Source: Synergistaceae bacterium
Lineage (GTDB): Bacteria > Synergistota > Synergistia > Synergistales > Aminobacteriaceae
Direction: 5' to 3'
Length of the DNA: 15,109 nucleotides
NCBI GenBank assembly: GCA_017475805.1
Contig: JAFVEW010000251.1
Coordinates: forward strand, 1-15,109
The position numbers and the translations under genes are program-made. Positions 1-15,109 of the stretch are shown piece after piece (the first letter of the stretch is position 1; the number at the start of each line of letters is the position of its first letter). The notes under the pieces were generated by a model. It was not told the origin of the DNA, made no database searches, and worked only from the letters and a program-made list of their open reading frames with translations.

Positions 1-141
1 AATAATTTATTTTATGTATAAATTTTTTAAGTGGGCTAAAATCCTGTTCAATAGACTGATCCACGAGAATATTTCTATCAGCCAAATACAAAATTTTGCT
101 TTTTAATCCTGAATGAAGAAGCCGATAAACAATTTGAAAAG
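1..141. repeat. Terminal direct repeat, left copy (circular overlap)
   Basis: These 141 bases recur without change at 14969-15109, the very end of the window. Both copies lie inside hsdR, and joining them keeps the hsdR frame open. This is best read as the overlap left when a circular molecule is written out linearly, not as a biological long terminal repeat. The circle would be 14,968 bp. Confidence 0.93.
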
Positions 142-715
142 CTGTATAAGTCTTGCCCGTACCTGTTGCCATTACAAGTAAAAGTCTATTCTGACCTTTT
201 GAAATAGCTTTTAGAACTCTATTAACGGCTATACGCTGATAAAAACGTGGCGGAAAAGTATTTTGCGATGAATAGAAAGGCTGATCAAGAATTTTCTTTT
301 CACCATCTGAAATTTTTGATTCTTTATAATAACGCTCTACTAATTGCTCTCTTGTAGGAAATTCACTCATACTAAATGAGCGTTCCACGCCAGTTAAATA
401 ATCAAATTCTTGAAAACCGAAACCGTTTGAAGAGTAAGCAAACGAAACTTCAAGTTTTTCAGCATACGTTTTAGCCTGTTGCAGCCCGTCTGAAATAGAA
501 TGTTCTGCATTTTTAGCTTCAATAACAGCTAAAGGTTCGTTAGCCGACATAAATAATAAATAATCAGCCCTCATAGGCTTTTCTCGTGAAGTTATATTTC
601 CGGCAAGCCTAATTCTTCCATTCGTGATTTGAGCTTCCATCGAAATAAATTCAGAAGGCCAGCCTTTTTGAACAGCAGGATTAATAAAACGTAATTTTAT
701 ATCTTCTTCAGTCAT
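1..715 (-). CDS. hsdR: Type I restriction enzyme R subunit, N-terminal part (continues across the circular join)
   Basis: This is the 5' part of hsdR. It starts at the ATG at 713-715 and runs off the window at base 1; the rest is at 13389-15109. Joined, the protein is 764 residues, the size of EcoEI-like (type IB) R subunits and shorter than the roughly 1,170 residues of EcoKI. This part holds the nuclease domain, with a PD-(D/E)xK signature at D51 and E66-A-K68. It also holds helicase motif I, ATGTGKT (183-189). HsdR translocates DNA with ATP and cleaves unmethylated DNA in complex with HsdM and HsdS. The ribosome site is weak (only AAG-rich sequence before the ATG). The gene follows the relaxase gene by 51 bases and has a possible promoter of its own at 745-750. 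A gene prediction on the linear window would miss this half. Confidence 0.9.
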   Translation of the reverse strand, partial: MTEEDIKLRFINPAVQKGWPSEFISMEAQITNGRIRLAGNITSREKPMRADYLLFMSANEPLAVIEAKNAEHSISDGLQQAKTYAEKLEVSFAYSSNGFGFQEFDYLTGVERSFSMSEFPTREQLVERYYKESKISDGEKKILDQPFYSSQNTFPPRFYQRIAVNRVLKAISKGQNRLLLVMATGTGKTYTAFQIVYRLLHSGLKSKILYLADRNILVDQSIEQDFSPLKKFIHKINY

Positions 716-6095: not shown

Positions 6096-6130
6096 TGTAA
6101 AGTGGCTTAAATACTGAAAAATTTTTTGAG

Positions 6131-6342
6131 TTTGCGTATGGAACTTACACCTTTGCGTATGGAACTTACACCTTTGCGTACGCGACTTACACCTTTGCGT
6201 ATGGAACTTACACCTTTTGCATAAATTACTTATACATGAGTGCTAAAATTAGCACTATTGAAAATATGGATGTATATTGTTTTTATAACTTTTCGTGTTT
6301 TTTGCGTATGGAACTTACACCTTCACGTACGGAACTTACACC
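6131..6342. other. oriV: Iteron-type replication origin (oriV), six 21-bp repeats
   Basis: Six direct repeats of 21 bp share the core GCGTATGGAACTTACACC. Four are head to tail at 6131-6151, 6152-6172, 6173-6193 and 6194-6214. Two more are at 6301-6321 and 6322-6342. The third and sixth are variants (GCGTACGCGACTTACACC and ACGTACGGAACTTACACC). Between the groups is an 86-bp AT-rich stretch with the inverted repeat GTGCTAA-AA-TTAGCAC (6240-6255), a likely melting region. Two turns of helix per unit, so all sites face the same side of the DNA, is classic for initiator binding. The array ends nine bases from the 3' end of the initiator gene, whereas iterons often lie upstream of rep. Confidence 0.85.
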
Positions 6343-6351
6343 TTTATAAGT

Positions 6352-7614
6352 TTAGTTATTATCTGTGTTTTTCTTGTTTTTTTGTTTGATTTGAAGTTTT
6401 TTTATTTTTTCTGCTTTCTTTTCTTGGATTTCTATAGTTCTAATTTTGGAGGTTTCGTAATCGTTTAATTCAAATTTCAAAATCAGAGAAATGAATTTCT
6501 CGTAGTTGTCGATTGCTCCTGCTCTTATTTCTTGATCTGTGATTTCTATTCCGCCTGAATAGCAATATCTCCAGTCTTTAAGGAATCCGCATTCTATAAG
6601 TTTGTCTAAGGCGTTTTCAAAAAGTTCTTTAACGTGTGCTTCCCAGCTCCATCTATGTTCTTTTAATTCATCGTAGGTTGGGAATGAAGTGCATTTTAAG
6701 ATTGTTTCTACTCTTAATTTTCCTTCTGTCTGTCGGATGACGTTATTATCTTGACTGTAATGAATGCACATGGCTTCGCCAATTGCAAAGGCGTTATAAT
6801 CCCTGTCGTCAAGTTTATAGAGTGATCGTGGATAATTTATCAGCGGTAGTGATGTGAGATATTCAGCCATGCTTATTGTAAACTCGATTCTGAGTGAATT
6901 TCCTTTTAGGTCGTATTTTCCGATGTAATTCATTCCGCTGTAATTTCTTTCTTGTCCTTTAATTTTTTCTGTCCACGTTATGTTTGAAGTCAGCAATATA
7001 TTTAAGGAGTTTTTTAGCTTACGTCTAAAATTTTTCATTGCGTCGTTTGAAGTTGTTTTAACTCCGTTGGCTGTGGCAAAGTCTTTAACGTCAAGGAGAA
7101 TTCTGCAGTTTGCTTTGTTTCCTTTTGCGTTTGAACTGTTTCTTTTTGTAAATTCTGCTACGGCGTATCTAAAAATTTTGGCTGTTCCTACACCTATATT
7201 TTGGATGCTCTCAGAGGTAAAGATATTCACGCCTTCTATATTTAATGTCCTTGTTGCTATGTCGAATTCGCCTTTTGTTTTTGCTCGTCCTAATACATTT
7301 GTAGCTTTGCCGCTGAACATATGTTGAAGGGGCTTGACGGCTGGGAGCTGGCGGTAGGCCTCTGACTTTACGGGCTTTTCTTCTTTTTCTTCGGCCTTAT
7401 CACGTATTTCGTTTCGATCGTCTTCAGGACTATTTCCGCCGGAGCGTCCCTCAGTGCTTTGCGCCGATTTTTTTTTTGACGCGGTTAATTCGCCGTTCTC
7501 GTCCAAACGCCCGAGACATTTCGATTTTTTCTTTACTTTGCCGTTATCGCGGTAGCTTGTAATTTCGTAAAGATACTTTCTTCCGTTAATATTTTTTGTT
7601 ACAATAAAGCTCAT
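6352..7614 (-). CDS. rep: Plasmid replication initiator protein
   Basis: A 420-residue protein, called an initiator mainly because a six-copy iteron array abuts its 3' end and a primase-helicase follows. The N-terminus (1-36, INGRKYLYEITSYRDNGKVK then LG) resembles the short N-terminal domain of IS1634-type transposases. A low-complexity, charged linker (about 45-85) follows. The main domain (about 95-365) is predicted mixed alpha/beta, with two likely winged-helix units (around FATANGVKTTSNDAMKNF and YDELKEHRWSWEAHVKELF). The C-terminus (390-420) is lysine-rich. The ATG at 7614 has AAAGGAGA six bases ahead and a TATAAT promoter flanked by operator-like sites. I do not recognise a precise Rep family, so the role is an inference from context plus fold-like features. 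Confidence 0.7.
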   Translation of the reverse strand: MSFIVTKNINGRKYLYEITSYRDNGKVKKKSKCLGRLDENGELTASKKKSAQSTEGRSGGNSPEDDRNEIRDKAEEKEEKPVKSEAYRQLPAVKPLQHMFSGKATNVLGRAKTKGEFDIATRTLNIEGVNIFTSESIQNIGVGTAKIFRYAVAEFTKRNSSNAKGNKANCRILLDVKDFATANGVKTTSNDAMKNFRRKLKNSLNILLTSNITWTEKIKGQERNYSGMNYIGKYDLKGNSLRIEFTISMAEYLTSLPLINYPRSLYKLDDRDYNAFAIGEAMCIHYSQDNNVIRQTEGKLRVETILKCTSFPTYDELKEHRWSWEAHVKELFENALDKLIECGFLKDWRYCYSGGIEITDQEIRAGAIDNYEKFISLILKFELNDYETSKIRTIEIQEKKAEKIKKLQIKQKNKKNTDNN

Positions 7615-7811: not shown

Positions 7812-7949
7812 ATGGATTCTGATTTTCAAAAAGATTTTCAAGTTCGGGTTTATCACGATGAAGGTTGTCTTATGGTTGAAGTTTCGAAAATCCGGGACAT
7901 AAATTTTTTTTTGTCGGTTATAAATTTTCTTGAAAGAATGCGGGAGTAA
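7812..7949 (+). CDS. Small protein of unknown function, 45 residues
   Basis: The frame opens with ATG 12 bases after the start of a near-perfect Shine-Dalgarno site (GGAGGTGA) and ends in TAA at 7947-7949, inside an intrinsic terminator. The protein starts MDSDFQKDFQVRVYHDEG and has a hydrophobic, helix-like second half (about 28-42) ending in basic residues. No cysteine pair, signal peptide or known motif is visible. It has its own promoter-like box, ribosome site and terminator, which makes a real gene more likely than its size alone would. The next 37 codons after the stop are also open in the same frame (to 8060) and read like a protein tail (YKKVIADWEKEHG), so it could be a shortened version of a longer gene. 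Function is unknown. Confidence 0.55.
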   Translation: MDSDFQKDFQVRVYHDEGCLMVEVSKIRDINFFLSVINFLERMRE

Positions 7950-8084: not shown

Positions 8085-9638
8085 ATGAAAATAAGAAGCT
8101 TGTCTATTACTAATTTTAGAGGTTATAGAAATACTACTCAGATATTTTTTGATGATTTAACTGTTTTTGTAGGTAAAAATGATGTTGGTAAGTCTACGAT
8201 TTTGGAAGCTCTTGATATTTTCTTTCATGATGGCAAAGATTTAATTAAATATGATAAGACGGATGTGAATATTCAAGAGGGACGTATAGGTAATGATGAT
8301 ACTATTATTTCTGTTGTTTTTGATGAACTTCCTGAACAAGTTGTTATTGATGCAACGTCAAATACAACTCTTAAGGATGAGTATTTACTTAATGCTGATG
8401 GTTTCTTGGAAGTAGTAAAAAAATTTCATAGTGGTTCAAGCATTAAGATTTTTATTAAAGCATTACATCCGACTGTTTCCAAATGTAGCGATTTACTTTT
8501 GAAAAAGAATAGTGAATTAAAATCGATATTGAAGAGTAATGATATTTGTTGTGAAAATCAGTCTTCTAACGTTAGTATTAGGAAGGCTATTTGGAAATGT
8601 TTCTCTGATGATTTGGGTTTACAGTCAATAGAGATTGATGTATCTAAAGAGGATGCTAAAAAAATATGGGGAAATATCTCCACTTACATGCCTGTATATT
8701 CCCTTTTTCAGTCAGATAGAAAGAATAGTGATGGGGATAGTGAGGTTCAAGATCCTCTTCAGGAAGCAGTAAAGCAAATTATTAATGATTCTAAATTGAA
8801 GAAGTCTTTAGCAGATATTGCTAATATAGTTATGAATAAACTTAATGAAGTATCTGATAGAACTCTTTCAAAATTGCGTGAAATGAATCCAGATATAGCA
8901 AATAGTTTAAGTCCTGTGATTCCAGCATTTGAAGAATTGAAGTGGTCGGATGTGTTTAAGAAAGTTTCTATATCTGGAGATGAAGGTATTCCGATAAATA
9001 AGCGTGGTAGTGGTGTGAAAAGGCTTGTCTTGTTGAATTTCTTTCGAGCTGAGGCTGAACGTAGAGTTGAGGAGAGAAGCGAAGAATTGGGTAGCACTGG
9101 GGTAATTTATGCTATAGAAGAACCTGAAACGTCGCAACATACTGAAAGTCAAAGGACATTAATACAAGCATTAAAAAGACTTTCTGATTTGCATCATACA
9201 CAAGTTATATTAACAACACATAGTGGATTTATCGTTAAGGAGCTTTCTTTTGAAAATTTAAGATTGGTAGAAGATATTGATGGTGAAAAGAAAGTTTTGA
9301 ATGTAGATTCTAAGGTTCTTACTTATCCTTCTCTTAATGAAGTTAATTTTTTGGCTTTTGGTGAGGTAGCTGAGGAATATCATAACGAACTCTATGGCTT
9401 TATTGTGTTGCAAGGTTGGCTAAGTGACTACGAAAAAGGGAAAAAACTTGTTAATTATATCCAAATTAATAATAGTGGAATTGTTTGTCAAAAGTTACAA
9501 ATTACTAAATCGAAATATATACGAAATCAAATTCATCATCCAGAAAATCAGCATAATGTGAGGTTTACTTTTCAAGAACTTAGAGATTCTATTGAGGATA
9601 TGAGGCAATATATTCAGAATAGGTTGGGAGAAGATTAG
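8085..9638 (+). CDS. OLD/RecF-like ATPase with a C-terminal HEPN-like RNase motif, putative defence protein
   Basis: A 517-residue protein. The ATPase has Walker A GKNDVGKS (30-37), an ABC-like signature KRGSGVKRL (306-314), Walker B IYAIEEPE (341-348) and an H-loop TTHSG (377-381). The helical insert (about 85-300) is the SMC/OLD arm region. Unlike OLD nucleases it has no TOPRIM domain. Instead the last 95 residues look helical and contain IRNQIHHPEN (479-488), an R-x4-H pattern (R480, H485) like the active site of HEPN RNases. ATPase-HEPN fusions include the anticodon nucleases PrrC and RloC, which guard type I R-M systems, so an RNA-cutting abortive-infection role is plausible. It starts at an ATG behind AAGGAGA. 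It is on the opposite strand to almost all other genes and ends two bases from the broken stub of the hsd operon. Confidence 0.75.
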   Translation: MKIRSLSITNFRGYRNTTQIFFDDLTVFVGKNDVGKSTILEALDIFFHDGKDLIKYDKTDVNIQEGRIGNDDTIISVVFDELPEQVVIDATSNTTLKDEYLLNADGFLEVVKKFHSGSSIKIFIKALHPTVSKCSDLLLKKNSELKSILKSNDICCENQSSNVSIRKAIWKCFSDDLGLQSIEIDVSKEDAKKIWGNISTYMPVYSLFQSDRKNSDGDSEVQDPLQEAVKQIINDSKLKKSLADIANIVMNKLNEVSDRTLSKLREMNPDIANSLSPVIPAFEELKWSDVFKKVSISGDEGIPINKRGSGVKRLVLLNFFRAEAERRVEERSEELGSTGVIYAIEEPETSQHTESQRTLIQALKRLSDLHHTQVILTTHSGFIVKELSFENLRLVEDIDGEKKVLNVDSKVLTYPSLNEVNFLAFGEVAEEYHNELYGFIVLQGWLSDYEKGKKLVNYIQINNSGIVCQKLQITKSKYIRNQIHHPENQHNVRFTFQELRDSIEDMRQYIQNRLGED

Positions 9639-9639
9639 G

Positions 9640-9755
9640 ATATTTTGCCTGCGCCGTTGTCGCTGATGATGATGTTTATGTCCGACGCAAGCAAATTTGA
9701 CGGTCAAATCTTCCATGCATCTGAAATTTACGAGGCGTATTTTACTGATGTACAT
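9640..9755 (-). pseudogene. Frameshifted 5' stub of an AAA/RecF-like ATPase gene
   Basis: Directly behind hsdS (ATG at 9755, three bases after its stop, with AAAGGAGA inside the hsdS end) a frame begins MYISKIRLVNFRCMEDL, a classic start of RecF/OLD-like ATPases. After about 24 residues the frame is lost. One frame over, the sequence continues as DINIIISDNGAGK, a clear Walker A. Homology stops at once near 9640, where the opposite-strand ATPase gene ends. So this is the translationally coupled fourth gene of the hsd operon, cut off in its P-loop and also frameshifted. It marks the edge of a deletion or insertion. Confidence 0.75.
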
Positions 9756-9758
9756 GAT

Positions 9759-11234
9759 CTATTCTCCTTTCATGGCTTCGCAAAGTGGCAATAATCCGTT
9801 TAGACGTTTGACGATTCGATTCTGTTCGGCAAGTGGCGGAAGTGGGACGAGTAAATTTTGCATTGTTTCTTTGTTCACTCTGGGCATTTTTATTCCGTAA
9901 GTTTTTTGATTGACTTCATTATCAATGAATGGTGATTTGAGAAAATAAATAATATATTCGTAATTTATTTTTCCATAACAACGGAATGGTACTAACTCCG
10001 GCGTGCAAAATCCATCGGATGGTGCAAGAAGAATTTTCAAGAGATACGGGCGTAACTTGCTGTATAAAATATCCCCTCTGTGGAAAATTGTTTTATCACC
10101 GATTGATTTTAATTCTTCAGCTTTTCTGTATCTTAAAATTTTTCCACCTTTTTCTATGTCTTCAAGGTCAAGAATCCATTCATTTTTATTGATGTTCTTG
10201 GCGTTGATTTTTGCGATAGGTTTACCATATGTTGAAATTTCTCCAAGCCTAACCCATACCCAATTATCAGGAATTTCAAAAGGCTTTTCGTAATCATCAA
10301 TCGACGGCAATGGCTTTTCTTTTTTGATTTTGCCTTCCGCAATCAATTTTTTCTTCTCAGCGCGAATTTCTTTTAATAGGTCATCCGCGTTGCCGTCCTC
10401 CGCACGTTGTTCTGTCAATTTGCCTTGAATTGCCGCTTGCAAAAGAGAGTCGCGCATATCGCCGGGAAATTTTTTCTTTAAGGCTTCTAATTCTGATTCG
10501 GCCTTGTCAAGTTCATCGAGCTTTGACATTATCGCCTCGACCCGTTCAACGATTCTTTCTTGTTCAGCGAGTGGCGGAAGTGGGATTAAAAATTCCGTTA
10601 TATAGCTTTCTTTGATGTTTTTTATACCTATTCCGTTAACTGTACTTGAAATATGTTCCCTATAATATTGACCTTGAAAAATTATTTTTATATATTCAGC
10701 GATGTTATTATAGATAGGTCTTATTATTCTTAAAAATGCTCCTATTTGTGCTTCTTTAAAAACATTATTTACAAAGGCGGCGCGCCCAATGCCTTTTAAG
10801 CTACCTGTTGAAGCGATTATGACTATATCTTGATTTTTTATTTTTTTCTCGTTATCGGAATATTTTCCCGGCAAGAAGACATCATCGTCAAAAATTTCAA
10901 TCTTTTCATTAACAAGATTTCCCCCGCGTAAAATTCTTAACCCCTTTTTGCAAATATCTTTTTTCTCATATGAAGTTCCAGATATTAATTTTATGATTTC
11001 TCCGAGCCTGATCCACGCCCAATTATCAGGAATATCAAACGGTTTTTCGTCATCATCAATCGACGGAAGGGGCTTTTCTTTTTTAATTTTGCCCTCCGCG
11101 ATTAATTTTTTCTTCTCAGCGCGAATTTTTTTCAATAAATCCCCTGCGTTACCGTCCTCCGGGCGTTGCTCCGTCAACTTGCCTTGAATAGCGGCTTGCA
11201 AAACCGACCGCTTTAAATCTTCTGAAAGTTTCAT
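9759..11234 (-). CDS. hsdS: Type I restriction-modification specificity subunit
   Basis: A 491-residue S subunit that picks the DNA target for both methylation and cleavage. It has two target-recognition domains (about 80-230 and 335-465) separated by helical spacers, each TRD ending in IPLPPLAEQ or VPLPPLAEQ. The segment before each TRD, from LLQAAIQGKLTEQ to PDNWxWxRLGE, occurs twice. At DNA level this is a 204-bp repeat with 31 differences (about 85% identity) offset by 759 bp. The ATG at 11234 is preferred because it overlaps the upstream stop as ATGA and follows GGTGAG; an upstream ATG (11255) has no ribosome site. It differs from the common hsdM-hsdS pairing in that a PIN module sits between it and hsdM. 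Confidence 0.92.
   Translation of the reverse strand: MKLSEDLKRSVLQAAIQGKLTEQRPEDGNAGDLLKKIRAEKKKLIAEGKIKKEKPLPSIDDDEKPFDIPDNWAWIRLGEIIKLISGTSYEKKDICKKGLRILRGGNLVNEKIEIFDDDVFLPGKYSDNEKKIKNQDIVIIASTGSLKGIGRAAFVNNVFKEAQIGAFLRIIRPIYNNIAEYIKIIFQGQYYREHISSTVNGIGIKNIKESYITEFLIPLPPLAEQERIVERVEAIMSKLDELDKAESELEALKKKFPGDMRDSLLQAAIQGKLTEQRAEDGNADDLLKEIRAEKKKLIAEGKIKKEKPLPSIDDYEKPFEIPDNWVWVRLGEISTYGKPIAKINAKNINKNEWILDLEDIEKGGKILRYRKAEELKSIGDKTIFHRGDILYSKLRPYLLKILLAPSDGFCTPELVPFRCYGKINYEYIIYFLKSPFIDNEVNQKTYGIKMPRVNKETMQNLLVPLPPLAEQNRIVKRLNGLLPLCEAMKGE
10241..10444. repeat. hsdS internal direct repeat, copy 2
   Basis: 204 bp matching 11000-11203 at 173 of 204 positions (my count). The longest exact run is about 25 bp (around 10345-10369). 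The offset of 759 bp is divisible by three. Confidence 0.85.
11000..11203. repeat. hsdS internal direct repeat, copy 1
   Basis: Partner of 10241-10444. Each copy encodes the helical spacer plus the first residues of a target-recognition domain. Many differences are at third codon positions, so both copies stayed under protein-level selection after duplication. Confidence 0.85.
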
Positions 11235-11452
11235 AATCTCACCGCATTTGGACATGAATTTTTATGAACTTCAAAATATTCACTCATTTCAGCGTCAATT
11301 TCTTCGCGTGATTTTTTATCAAAATAATTTCTCTGCCATTCTGTGTAGTCAAAGTCTTCTGCTTTGATGAGAGAAATAAATTTTTCAGTTTCAATAATTC
11401 CCATATTTTCGGCAAGAATTTGCATTCCTTGAAATATTGTGTTAATATTCAT
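11231..11452 (-). CDS. Small partner protein of the PIN toxin, probable antitoxin
   Basis: A 73-residue acidic, helical protein. The most distinctive segment is FDYTEWQRNYFDKKSREEI (34-52). No DNA-binding fold is obvious by eye. It begins at an ATG eight bases after GAGGTGA, which itself overlaps the stop of the PIN gene, and its own stop overlaps the hsdS start as ATGA. Direct coupling to a PIN-domain gene is the main reason for calling it the antitoxin or cognate partner. Small proteins of this kind beside PIN genes are familiar to me, but I cannot name the family. The toxin gene comes first, the reverse of the usual antitoxin-first order. Confidence 0.6.
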   Translation of the reverse strand: MNINTIFQGMQILAENMGIIETEKFISLIKAEDFDYTEWQRNYFDKKSREEIDAEMSEYFEVHKNSCPNAVRL

Positions 11453-11465
11453 AACTTAATTCACC

Positions 11466-11900
11466 TCAAATTATTCTTATGAAATCTAAAGGATTTACGA
11501 TTTTTATTTCTGAACCTTTGTATCTCTTTTGCAATCTTATATCAGTCGTGATAAAATAATCAGTTCTTGCGAATATTGCACAAGCAACGTGTGTAGCGTC
11601 TTTATAAGCTATTCCGTAATTCATAATTTCTGTAATTTTTTCCTGCAAATCGTCTTTTCTTTCTATAGGCACGAAATATTTTGAAAATTCATATATGTAT
11701 GATAAAACAAAAGTTCTTTTTACTAAATCGTGATTTTTAGAATTTTCATATTCGAGCATATATGAGGCTACGAGCTCTAAATCTCCTTGTCTGATTTTTT
11801 CTTGTATATAAAGTTTCGCTTGTGTTTCAAGTGAAACCTTTAATGAAGTTTGAGAATCATATGGCCGATTGTAACAACAGTTATCAAGATAAATTCTCAA
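11466..11900 (-). CDS. PIN-domain ribonuclease, probable toxin
   Basis: A 144-residue PIN-domain protein. The four acidic metal-binding positions can be placed at D6 (IYLDNCC), E50 (SYMLEYENS), D101 (YKDATHVACAIF) and D120 (FITTDIRL). The KDATHVACA and FITTD blocks are typical of VapC-like nucleases, which cut RNA such as tRNA or rRNA. The start is a TTG at 11900, about 12 bases after AAGGAG in the end of hsdM; no ATG fits the start of the fold. It lies ten bases after hsdM and 13 before its small partner, inside the hsd operon. It would be co-expressed with the methylase, so its toxicity must be controlled by the partner or by the complex. Confidence 0.8.
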   Translation of the reverse strand: MRIYLDNCCYNRPYDSQTSLKVSLETQAKLYIQEKIRQGDLELVASYMLEYENSKNHDLVKRTFVLSYIYEFSKYFVPIERKDDLQEKITEIMNYGIAYKDATHVACAIFARTDYFITTDIRLQKRYKGSEIKIVNPLDFIRII

Positions 11901-13388: not shown

Positions 13389-15109
13389 TTATCCTGCCTT
13401 ATAAATTATTTCTTCTAACTTCCGTAACGCTTCAGTATAGCCTTCTTTGCCGTCGAAATATGAAATTATTTTTGACGGGCTGCCAAATTTATTCAACGGA
13501 TCGGATTTTAGAATGGCGTTATTTTCTATTTCAAAAACTCCTAAATCTTTGTATTTTTCGAGAAGAGTTTCAAGAATTTCTCTTGCTGTTCCTGAATATT
13601 TGCTGAAAAAATCGCTTCGTTTGACTTTTTCGGCGCGTTCTGCCCTTGTTAAAGGCTTTTTATCAAAGGCAACATGGCAGATAAAATCGAAGTCATCAAC
13701 ATCAGCCATATTTTGCTCACGTTTCAGAACTTCGAGATCGAGTCCCTTTTCTTTGAGAAGCTCGTCAAGTTCGCGTTTTTTCTTCATACTTGACCATTTG
13801 AGAATAAAATTATCGAGCGTAGCAAATTCTCCACATACGCTTCTCTTTGTGTAGTCAATAATGCTTTCTTGCCTTAAAAGTTTTCCGCTTGCGTCATAAA
13901 TTAAAACTCTCTTCTGAATTATAAAAACTGAACAGCCGTCTTTATCAACAATAGGCTTTTGCTGTGGTGGTAACGGCGGTAATGGTGGCCAATCAATAAT
14001 AGGATGTTCAGGGGACTTTTTACCTTTTCCAAAATCAGGATCAATATCAATAGGACCGTCCCAATCAGGGTCAGCGAAATGCCTACTAACTCCGCGTAAA
14101 TCCATAATTACGAATGAAAGTTTATCAGCTTTTTCTACAATCCGTGTTCCGCGTCCTATAATTTGCTTAAACTGTGTCATTGACGAGATATTTTTATCGA
14201 TGACTATTAATTTTACAGTTTTTGTATCAACTCCTGTTGATAATAATTCTGAAGTTGTAGCGATAACAGGATAAGGCTCGGCAATAGAAATAAAATATTC
14301 AAGTTTACTTTTGCCGTAATTATCGGAGCTTGTAATCCTTACAACGTAATCAGGGTGATTTTTCATCATATCAGCGTTTAGCTTTGTAAGTTCCGCTCTC
14401 ATTCTTTCAGCCGCGTCTTGATTAGCGCAAAAGACTATAGTTTTCTGCATTCTATCTGAAGCCTTTAGATAATTTGTAATTTCTTCAGCAACAGCTCTGA
14501 CTCTGTCCTGTAAAATTATGTTGTAATCGTAATCAAGATTATTATAAATTCTGTCTTCAATTTCGTTGCCGTAAATATCTTTTTGACCTTTGACTGGTCG
14601 CCAACCGTCTGCGACGTTTAAGACAGGCTCAACAACTTTGAACGGAGCTAAAAATCCGTCTTGAATTCCATCGTTAAGACTATATTTATAAACAGGCTCT
14701 CCAAAATAGTTTATATTAGAAGCATATTCAGTTTCTTTTGGGGTTGCTGTCATACCGAGTTGAGTCGCCGAAGAAAAATATTTCAAAATATCATGCCATT
14801 GTTTGTCAGCATTGGCCGAACCTCTATGACACTCATCAATAATAATAAAATCAAAGAAGCCAGGCTTAAATAATTTTTCATAGCGTTTCTCACCGTCATC
14901 GCCTATCAGCTGTTGATATAACGAAAAATAAACTTCATAACTTGTAATTTGCCTATCTTTATCCTGTGAATAATTTATTTTATGTATAAATTTTTTAAGT
15001 GGGCTAAAATCCTGTTCAATAGACTGATCCACGAGAATATTTCTATCAGCCAAATACAAAATTTTGCTTTTTAATCCTGAATGAAGAAGCCGATAAACAA
15101 TTTGAAAAG
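13389..15109 (-). CDS. hsdR: Type I restriction enzyme R subunit, C-terminal part (helicase/translocase and C-terminal domain)
   Basis: This is the 3' part of hsdR, open to the window edge. The true start is the ATG at 715, across the circular join, so any start inside this segment (for example the TTG near 15059) is an artefact. In full-length numbering it carries the DECH box (283-286), TATP motif III (312-315) and motif VI GRGTR (510-514) of the superfamily 2 helicase. A C-terminal region of EcoEI_R_C type follows and should contact the methylase core. A proline-rich linker (PPLPPLPPQ) lies between the helicase and the C-terminal domain. The TAA at 13389-13391 is three bases before the hsdM start, so the two genes are translated as a coupled pair. 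Nothing suggests damage. Confidence 0.93.
   Translation of the reverse strand, partial: FQIVYRLLHSGLKSKILYLADRNILVDQSIEQDFSPLKKFIHKINYSQDKDRQITSYEVYFSLYQQLIGDDGEKRYEKLFKPGFFDFIIIDECHRGSANADKQWHDILKYFSSATQLGMTATPKETEYASNINYFGEPVYKYSLNDGIQDGFLAPFKVVEPVLNVADGWRPVKGQKDIYGNEIEDRIYNNLDYDYNIILQDRVRAVAEEITNYLKASDRMQKTIVFCANQDAAERMRAELTKLNADMMKNHPDYVVRITSSDNYGKSKLEYFISIAEPYPVIATTSELLSTGVDTKTVKLIVIDKNISSMTQFKQIIGRGTRIVEKADKLSFVIMDLRGVSRHFADPDWDGPIDIDPDFGKGKKSPEHPIIDWPPLPPLPPQQKPIVDKDGCSVFIIQKRVLIYDASGKLLRQESIIDYTKRSVCGEFATLDNFILKWSSMKKKRELDELLKEKGLDLEVLKREQNMADVDDFDFICHVAFDKKPLTRAERAEKVKRSDFFSKYSGTAREILETLLEKYKDLGVFEIENNAILKSDPLNKFGSPSKIISYFDGKEGYTEALRKLEEIIYKAG
14969..15109. repeat. Terminal direct repeat, right copy (circular overlap)
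   Basis: Exact copy of bases 1-141. In a circularised sequence one copy should be removed. The repeat length is a common maximum k-mer size in short-read assemblers, which supports an assembly origin for the overlap. Confidence 0.93.

What the first reader, a model, noticed from the sequence alone, without database searches (positions are those of the whole stretch)
9321..9638. ATPase fused to a HEPN-like domain beside a type I R-M operon
The plus-strand OLD-like ATPase lacks a TOPRIM domain. Its last 95 residues look helical and carry IRNQIHHPEN, matching the R-x4-6-H active-site pattern of HEPN RNases. PrrC and RloC are ATPase/HEPN-type anticodon nucleases linked to type I R-M loci and are set off when restriction is disturbed. 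This protein has a different, shorter ATPase but the same domain logic and neighbourhood, so it may be another guard-type RNase.
Basis: inference. Interest (0 to 1): 0.7.

Follow-up and report, generated by a model that had tools for sequence, protein, structure and literature searches.

The report
Restriction-linked ATPase with RNase-like tail
A bacterial plasmid carries, beside its DNA-restriction genes, a one-piece alarm protein: an ATP-driven sensor joined to a small domain that looks like an RNA-cutting enzyme, and relatives of it sit beside several classes of DNA-restriction system.

Summary
The 517-residue plus-strand protein (8085-9638) is an OLD/AAA_15-type ABC ATPase (residues 1-395) without TOPRIM, ending in a 108-residue domain that no Pfam model covers. 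R480, H484 and H485 are kept in all 248 aligned domains; 359 of 360 listed homologues fit R[HND]xxHHP[ED]N, the HEPN pattern. A confident AlphaFold2 model (pLDDT 88.7) has the published HEPN layout, but fold searches found no solved relative and my profile-profile test had no power: HEPN is likely, not proven. The PrrC/RloC catalytic triad is absent. The same tail sits on very different ATPase cores, and the window's core is closer to TOPRIM-ending cores than to those, so the tail fills an effector slot. Best reading: an R-M companion that senses DNA damage or failed restriction and cuts RNA to abort infection; a new variant of the ABC-ATPase-HEPN kind. The window is a complete circular plasmid of about 14,968 bp.

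The parts
8085..9269 (+). OLD/AAA_15-type ABC ATPase core, residues 1-395 (Walker A GKNDVGKST, signature RGSG, Walker B AIEEPE, H-loop TTHS)
   Evidence: Pfam AAA_15 1-384; these motifs found in 117, 119, 118 and 118 of 120 homologues; full-length model, best structural matches include SMC heads, GajA, TsOLD, PtuA
9312..9635 (+).
   Evidence: AlphaFold2 pLDDT 88.7 for residues 405-517; only chance-level Pfam hits for 21 members; same tail on distinct ATPase cores
9372..9395 (+). helix-2 motif EEYHNELY (residues 430-437) with H433 and E435: candidate acidic active-site residue
   Evidence: E435 in 248 of 248, H433 in 247 of 248 aligned domains; helix 430-442 in the model
9522..9557 (+). RNQIHHPENQHN (residues 480-491): R-polar-x3-H motif, predicted catalytic
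   Evidence: R480, H484, H485, P486 and N488 in 248 of 248; residue after R is H 170, N 77, D 1
9640..9755 (-). apparent remnant of the start of another ABC ATPase gene directly after hsdS (MYISKIRLVNFRCMEDLTVKF, frame then broken)
   Evidence: ORF 9495-9755; read by eye, not searched
9759..11255 (-). hsdS, type I specificity subunit
   Evidence: Methylase_S 80.8 bits; PADLOC Specificity_I 432.8 bits
11910..13385 (-). hsdM
   Evidence: N6_Mtase 217.3 bits, HsdM_N
13389..15107 (-). hsdR, C-terminal part; continues at 715-2 across the circular junction
   Evidence: EcoEI_R_C, ResIII; window ends 1-141 and 14969-15109 are identical
2..715 (-). hsdR, N-terminal part of the same gene across the junction
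   Evidence: ORF list and 141-bp terminal repeat

Best explanation
The gene encodes a single-protein abortive-infection companion of R-M systems. An OLD/SMC-head-like ABC ATPase dimer senses a sign that restriction has met an invader (most likely DNA ends left by restriction or by the phage, or an anti-restriction protein) and, by binding and hydrolysing ATP, brings two C-terminal HEPN-like domains into an active pair. These cut RNA, probably tRNA, with R480 and H485 as catalytic residues and E435 as a helper, halting translation and the infection. Shown here: the two-part anatomy, the conservation, the predicted topology, the R-M linkage, and that the tail occupies the place of a TOPRIM-like region in sister proteins. 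Inferred: that the fold is HEPN, RNA cleavage, the dimeric active site, the trigger and the defence role.
For: Motif: 359 of 360 listed homologues fit R[HND]xxHHP[ED]N; I, V or L before R in 248 of 248 and I at R+3 in 247; of 30 HepT-family proteins fetched for comparison (called HEPN from recall) 29 fit the same frame [hydrophobic]R[NDH]x[ILVM]xH. [quoted passage not shown]). Modularity: the window's core is 42-46% identical over about 400 columns to 8 cores ending in TOPRIM-like sequence, while of 17 diverged cores with the window's kind of tail only 3 align along their length (21-24%) and 14 only in short pieces; on a tree of 40 cores the tail type changes once, support 100/99. Linkage: 11 of 27 domain-bearing loci have R-M genes within 4 kb, for example type III Mod-Res-ATPase (L005), HsdM-ATPase-HsdS-HsdR (L030), HsdM-ATPase-HsdS (L025), HsdR-ATPase (L009), and AlwI and NgoBV endonuclease genes directly upstream (L016, L011). 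In 16 genomes, 7 have a DNA-methylase or specificity gene within 4 kb (distances read by hand) against at most 0.97 expected by a union bound, P about 1e-5.
Confidence: 0.6

Rival explanations
1. The tail is a nuclease of another kind, for instance metal-dependent, with H433, E435, H484, H485 and E487 as ligands, or a DNA-cutting domain that replaces TOPRIM.
For: Many polar residues besides R480 and H485 are invariant or nearly so (E419, H433, E435, H484, E487, N488, N491); sister proteins carry TOPRIM-like sequence at the same place; no HEPN structure was matched.
Against: The Rx4H spacing, the H/N/D residue after R and the helix-3/loop position are those published for HEPN. An HNH-type reading would want the HH pair on a beta-hairpin (recalled), but it lies at the end of a helix after the hairpin.
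Confidence: 0.22
2. A PrrC-type guard: it is held silent by direct contact with the R-M enzyme next to it and freed when that enzyme is blocked.
For: Same-strand neighbours of type I and III systems; PrrC is silenced by its linked type I enzyme (PMC2610378 abstract as listed; PMC3710099 passages).
Against: Partners are unrelated enzymes (Hsd subunits, Mod/Res, AlwI, NgoBV, DpnII-type, MutH-like), so one conserved contact surface is unlikely; the PrrC/RloC triad is absent (1 of 248); in 16 of 27 loci no R-M gene was counted nearby.
Confidence: 0.2
3. An anti-restriction sensor like AriA of PARIS, with the AriB effector replaced by the fused tail.
For: The ATPase is of the AAA_15 class used to detect PARIS; AriA detects Ocr, an inhibitor of restriction (PMC12409363 and PMC12839542 passages).
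Against: The PADLOC 'AriA' model that hits best (PDLC02979) spans the same stretch as Pfam AAA_15 and is not specific; phmmer similarity to solved AriA is limited to residues 6-46; no DUF4435 was seen among the 10 window proteins scanned.
Confidence: 0.3
4. A plasmid-maintenance toxin or selfish gene that merely shares islands with R-M genes.
For: The window is a small plasmid with mobilisation genes, an R-M system and a PIN-like gene with a small neighbour; defence and mobile genes cluster.
Against: Direct same-strand placement with R-M genes of several types on genome contigs and IMG/VR contigs. I did not search for a constant antitoxin partner.
Confidence: 0.12

Closest known systems
PrrC / RloC anticodon nucleases (ABC ATPase with C-terminal HEPN)
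   Same: N-terminal ABC ATPase, C-terminal HEPN or HEPN-like domain, some R-M linkage
   Different: Different ATPase (AAA_15/OLD type, no zinc hook), different active-site pattern (R-x4-H, not R-x3-E-x36-52-H), no similarity beyond the P-loop to an E. coli prophage protein that PADLOC labels PDC-S06 and, more weakly, PrrC (best E 0.12), linkage to type II as well
OLD-family nucleases (P2 Old, GajA, Retron-Eco8) and the TOPRIM-like-ending sisters L020-L023, L093-L096
   Same: ATPase core; these 8 sisters share 42-46% of core residues
   Different: TOPRIM replaced by the HEPN-like domain
PARIS (AriA/AriB)
   Same: AAA_15-type ATPase class, presumed sensor role
   Different: No AriB/DUF4435 partner seen; effector fused and of another kind
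Other ABC-HEPN fusions of PMC3710099 (APECO1_4465, ERFG_01251 groups)
   Same: ABC ATPase with C-terminal HEPN
   Different: A P2-like-prophage ATPase of E. coli APEC O1 that is probably, not certainly, APECO1_4465 is unlike the window's protein. ERFG_01251 is described as closer to MNT-associated HEPN and was not compared. The supplementary alignments could not be read, so identity with a group listed there is not excluded
paraMORC-Ymh and DUF499-HEPN proteins at R-M or BREX-like loci
   Same: ATPase plus HEPN as a proposed backup effector beside R-M components (PMC3710099 and PMC12839542 passages)
   Different: Other ATPase families; HEPN N-terminal in DUF499

Membership tests
HEPN superfamily | Rx4-6H motif, residue after R mostly N, D or H | tested here: met
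   359 of 360 listed homologues; H 170, N 77, D 1 of 248; definition from PMC3710099
HEPN superfamily | motif at end of helix 3 / start of loop to helix 4; two helical hairpins with insert between helices 2 and 3; about 100-120 residues | tested here: met
HEPN superfamily | conserved acidic residue in helix 2 | tested here: met
   E435 in 248 of 248; E or D at 431 in 247 of 248
HEPN superfamily | that acid within Ex3[KR] (typical, not universal) | tested here: not met
   E435 is followed by LYGF; no K/R at +4
HEPN superfamily | fold match to a solved HEPN | tested here: inconclusive
   No significant match
HEPN superfamily | profile-profile similarity to known HEPN families | tested here: inconclusive
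   No hit, but the positive control HepT against AAA_13 failed too
HEPN superfamily | metal-independent RNase activity | not testable with these tools
   needs a bench assay
PrrC/RloC anticodon nucleases | R-x3-E-x36-52-H triad | tested here: not met
   can be placed in 1 of 248 domains; triad from PMC2610378 passage
PrrC/RloC anticodon nucleases | RloC: Rad50-like coiled-coil with CxxC zinc hook | tested here: not met
   no CxxC in the 517 residues (read by eye); AAA_15 match runs through
OLD nuclease family | ABC ATPase linked to C-terminal TOPRIM | tested here: not met
   ATPase present, no TOPRIM match; definition PMC10568477 passage
PARIS | AriA-type ATPase with AriB (DUF4435) as partner or fusion | tested here: not met
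   no DUF4435 in the 10 window proteins scanned, this one included; not scanned: the N-terminal hsdR part and ORFs under 140 aa other than the two small ones listed there

The most novel reading that the evidence does not exclude
A previously unnamed effector domain (signature NE[VI]N ... E[YF]H[ND]ELYG ... R[HND]x-I-HHPEN-xx-N), fused to several far-diverged ABC ATPase cores, serves as a general last-line companion of R-M systems of types I, II and III. It responds to something all of them share, such as broken or failed-to-be-broken DNA, rather than to one partner enzyme.
Probability: 0.35. Interest if true: 0.8.

Novelty: new variant of a known kind. Interest (0 to 1): 0.6.

Why it matters
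PrrC is the classic case of a suicide RNase kept beside an R-M system as a second line of defence, tied to one type of enzyme. A family with the same domain logic but another ATPase and another active site, found beside restriction systems of types I, II and III, suggests that backing up restriction with RNA cleavage is a general strategy with a shared trigger. That makes the trigger testable by asking what unrelated restriction enzymes have in common. The domain has no Pfam model, no specific PADLOC label in the rows shown and, in my nine searches of a CC-licensed library, no name in print.

Tried and rejected
Sequence search of solved structures with the domain profile: only chance-like hits, best E 0.035. 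Pfam scan of 21 domain members at E up to 10: chance-level hits only, including one to RnlA_toxin at E 0.074, which I do not use. Foldseek against PDB and BFVD and VIA-align: nothing usable. By title I saw no HEPN structure in the rows shown (50 of 192, 50 of 504, 13 of 13); by the tool's note that does not exclude the fold. hhalign against HepT (30 sequences) and AAA_13 (16 sequences, at least two of them truncated or off-frame at the C-terminus): no power (one search used the wrong strand for most loci and was superseded).

HNH reading of HHPEN...N: set aside because the HH pair ends a helix in the model. PADLOC 'AriA' and 'GajA' labels: set aside as generic ATPase matches. RloA of Campylobacter: a paper describes rloA and an overlapping rloB inside an hsd region (PMC2928727 passage); a Campylobacter jejuni fragment carries the present domain (P0227), but I could not link it to any rlo gene.

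Prevalence by sampled genomes: the domain was found in 1 of 398 genomes of one phylum, that one being the seed itself, so this route was dropped. The window's own genome is not held. No plasmid in PLSDB matches the window by megablast. One viral-contig scan with the full protein gave no relative; the domain profile gave 5 loci.

Limits of the counts. The 16 genomes of the enrichment count are those of 16 of the 20 domain-bearing genome loci (not L001, L004, L008, L015). Neighbours of the 20 loci were scanned by Pfam as one pool of 121 proteins, of which only the first 25 of 138 families were shown, and 14 neighbours one by one; neighbours of L027-L032 were compared only with 20 reference proteins by phmmer. 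Not counted as R-M-linked: L004 (MT-A70 methylase only) and L029 (a 239-aa ORF about 1.5 kb away with a weak HsdM match, E 1.8e-10). Near-duplicates are counted apart in the 27: L001/L002, L007/L008 (like proteins, different neighbours), L027/L028. Rows left out of the domain alignment: P0003 (a 379-aa fragment), P0070 and P0097, and 15 of 120 diverged rows, the latter two groups because my cutting pattern missed them; all 18 keep the motif. L024 (core 48% identical) ends at a contig end and shows no tail, so it is in neither group.

Novelty in print rests on searches; supplementary files could not be opened. Papers: PMC3710099 section 6 read plus passages; PMC2610378, PMC12839542, PMC10853773, PMC9122126, PMC13092281, PMC12409363, PMC10568477, PMC2928727 and PMC9490421 passages only; PMC3874168 abstract and section list only. 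Miller et al. 2005 (rlo genes) seen only as a reference.

Full report
The window is a whole plasmid. Its first and last 141 bases are identical, so it is a circular molecule of about 14,968 bp read slightly past its start. It carries an unannotated 420-aa gene that I take for a replication protein (no family match) with iteron-like repeats beside its stop end, a TOPRIM/DnaB-type gene, a NikA/TraI-type mobilisation pair, and a complete minus-strand type I R-M operon whose hsdR gene crosses the junction. The gene of interest, 8085-9638 on the plus strand, is convergent to hsdS with 120 bp between their ends.

The 517-residue protein matches Pfam AAA_15 over residues 1-384 at 290.7 bits and has no TOPRIM match. 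A full-length AlphaFold2 model (pLDDT 84.6, pTM 0.77) is nearest to SMC/Rad50 heads, Gabija GajA, OLD from Thermus scotoductus and Septu PtuA. For the last 108 residues Pfam gives only chance-level hits.

That tail is strongly conserved. In 121 aligned sequences R480, I483, H484, H485, P486, N488 and N491 never vary, and 17 of 35 invariant columns among 42 aligned proteins lie in it. A second search seeded with a very different ATPase (L031) found 328 proteins with the same tail. Over 248 aligned tails (window included) R480, H484, H485, P486, N488, E419 and E435 are invariant, and the residue after R is H, N or D in all 248 (170, 77 and 1). Over the 360 listed homologues 359 fit R[HND]xxHHP[ED]N.

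Is it HEPN? [quoted passage not shown]). The tail-only model (pLDDT 88.7, 21 aligned sequences) agrees with the full-length one: helices at 417-425 and 430-442, a beta-hairpin insert within 455-474, helix 475-484 holding R480 with H485 next after it, and helix 496-516. These features are met, except that the acid is not in an Ex3[KR] string. In 30 HepT-family proteins fetched for comparison, 29 carry the same frame (hydrophobic)-R-[NDH]-x-[ILVM]-x-H. Against this, neither Foldseek nor VIA-align showed a HEPN structure, and profile-profile comparison found nothing, though it also failed between two accepted HEPN families and so has no power. I put HEPN at likely, not proven.

It is not a PrrC or RloC. 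Their triad R-x3-E-x(36-52)-H (PMC2610378 passage) can be placed in 1 of 248 tails, there is no zinc hook, and an E. coli prophage protein of the PrrC/PDC-S06 kind shows no similarity beyond the P-loop (best E 0.12).

The tail looks like an exchangeable effector. Cores of L020-L023 and four plasmid proteins (L093-L096) are 42-46% identical to the window's core over about 400 columns but end in sequence with the VEG..D and D.D marks of TOPRIM (recalled motif). Pfam's OLD-like_TOPRIM hits only one of the four scanned (L020, below cut-off), and L093 is cut short next to a Tn3 transposase gene. Of 17 diverged cores that carry the window's kind of tail, 3 align with the window's core along their length at 21-24% and 14 only in short pieces. 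On a tree of 40 cores the tail type changes once (support 100/99). The tree is unrooted, so the direction is not known; it warns of long branches, and whether the TOPRIM group lies inside or beside the window's group is weakly supported (88/66).

Neighbours. Of 27 domain-bearing loci outside the window (20 of the 25 loci, one more place, five, one), 11 have R-M genes within 4 kb. Type III: L005 (Mod, Res, then the ATPase) and L031 (a Mod-like gene, a large gene read by eye as a helicase, then the ATPase). Type I: L025 (HsdM-ATPase-HsdS), L030 (HsdM-ATPase-HsdS-HsdR), L009 (HsdR-ATPase), a second place in the L025 genome (G016:C22) and L006 (methylase fragment and S-like gene upstream). Type II: L016 (D12 methylase, AlwI endonuclease, then the ATPase), L011 (C5 methylase, NgoBV endonuclease, then the ATPase), L010 (D12 and N6_N4 methylases downstream; a DpnII endonuclease is among the pooled neighbours) and L013 (C5 methylase, MutH-like endonuclease, two genes between). 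Loci without a counted R-M gene include L018 (TIR-domain neighbour) and L007 (AAA_21 ATPase neighbour). Counting five methylase/specificity families over 16 genomes, 7 have one within 4 kb of the gene, against at most 0.97 expected by a union bound (Poisson-binomial P about 1e-5; distances read by hand). Clustering of defence genes in islands could account for part of this, but the direct same-strand cases are harder to explain that way. For comparison, the RloC authors found 8 of 72 RloC genes at type I or III R-M loci.

How it most likely works. The ATPase is of a kind that in OLD, SMC and Rad50 relatives dimerises on ATP and often touches DNA (recalled). The tail has the marks of a HEPN RNase, which is typically dimeric (PMC13092281 passage). 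The simplest model is that ATP-driven closure of the heads brings two tails together. Because the R-M partners are unrelated enzymes, a trigger they share, such as DNA ends (as for RloC; PMC3874168 abstract) or a phage anti-restriction protein (as for PARIS; PMC12409363 passages), is more plausible than one fixed contact as in PrrC. The target is probably tRNA by analogy only. None of these steps has been shown here.

Novelty. ABC-ATPase-HEPN fusions and R-M-linked HEPN proteins as a class are known (PMC3710099). What appears new is this domain, the kind of ATPase it is fused to, and association with R-M of types I, II and III. I could not read the supplementary alignments of the 2013 survey, so one of its listed groups might include it.

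Noticed in passing
window 1-141 and 14969-15109: The window ends are identical: a complete circular plasmid of about 14,968 bp; the hsdR gene spans the junction.
   Followed up: yes
window 9640-9755 (-): Directly after hsdS lies what looks like the broken start of a second ABC-ATPase gene (Walker A region readable only in another frame), as if the R-M operon once had its own downstream ATPase.
   Followed up: partly
window 11231-11452 and 11466-11900 (-): Two small genes between hsdS and hsdM: a 73-aa protein without a match and a 144-aa protein with a sub-threshold PIN match (E 0.079): possibly a toxin-antitoxin pair inside the hsd operon.
   Followed up: no
window 6110-6345: 21-bp iteron-like repeats (TTTGCGTATGGAACTTACACC) in two clusters beside the stop end of the unannotated 420-aa gene 6352-7614(-).
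   Followed up: no
window 10237-10444 and 10996-11203: Two 208-bp repeats (85% identical) inside hsdS, in its two half-subunit regions, a possible site for recombination of specificity.
   Followed up: no
window 7812-7949 (+): A 45-codon ORF (MDSDFQKDFQVRVYHDEG...) with an apparent ribosome-binding site between the 420-aa gene and the ATPase; function unknown.
   Followed up: no
G016:C22 and G016:C58 (L025): One Moranbacteria genome has two places that match the tail profile, each beside its own methylase and specificity genes.
   Followed up: partly
L007 5604-7297 and L014 6403-9684: Other ATPase genes followed by small genes, read by eye as RloB/TOPRIM-like, lie next to the HHPEN ATPase in two loci: likely defence islands.
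   Followed up: partly
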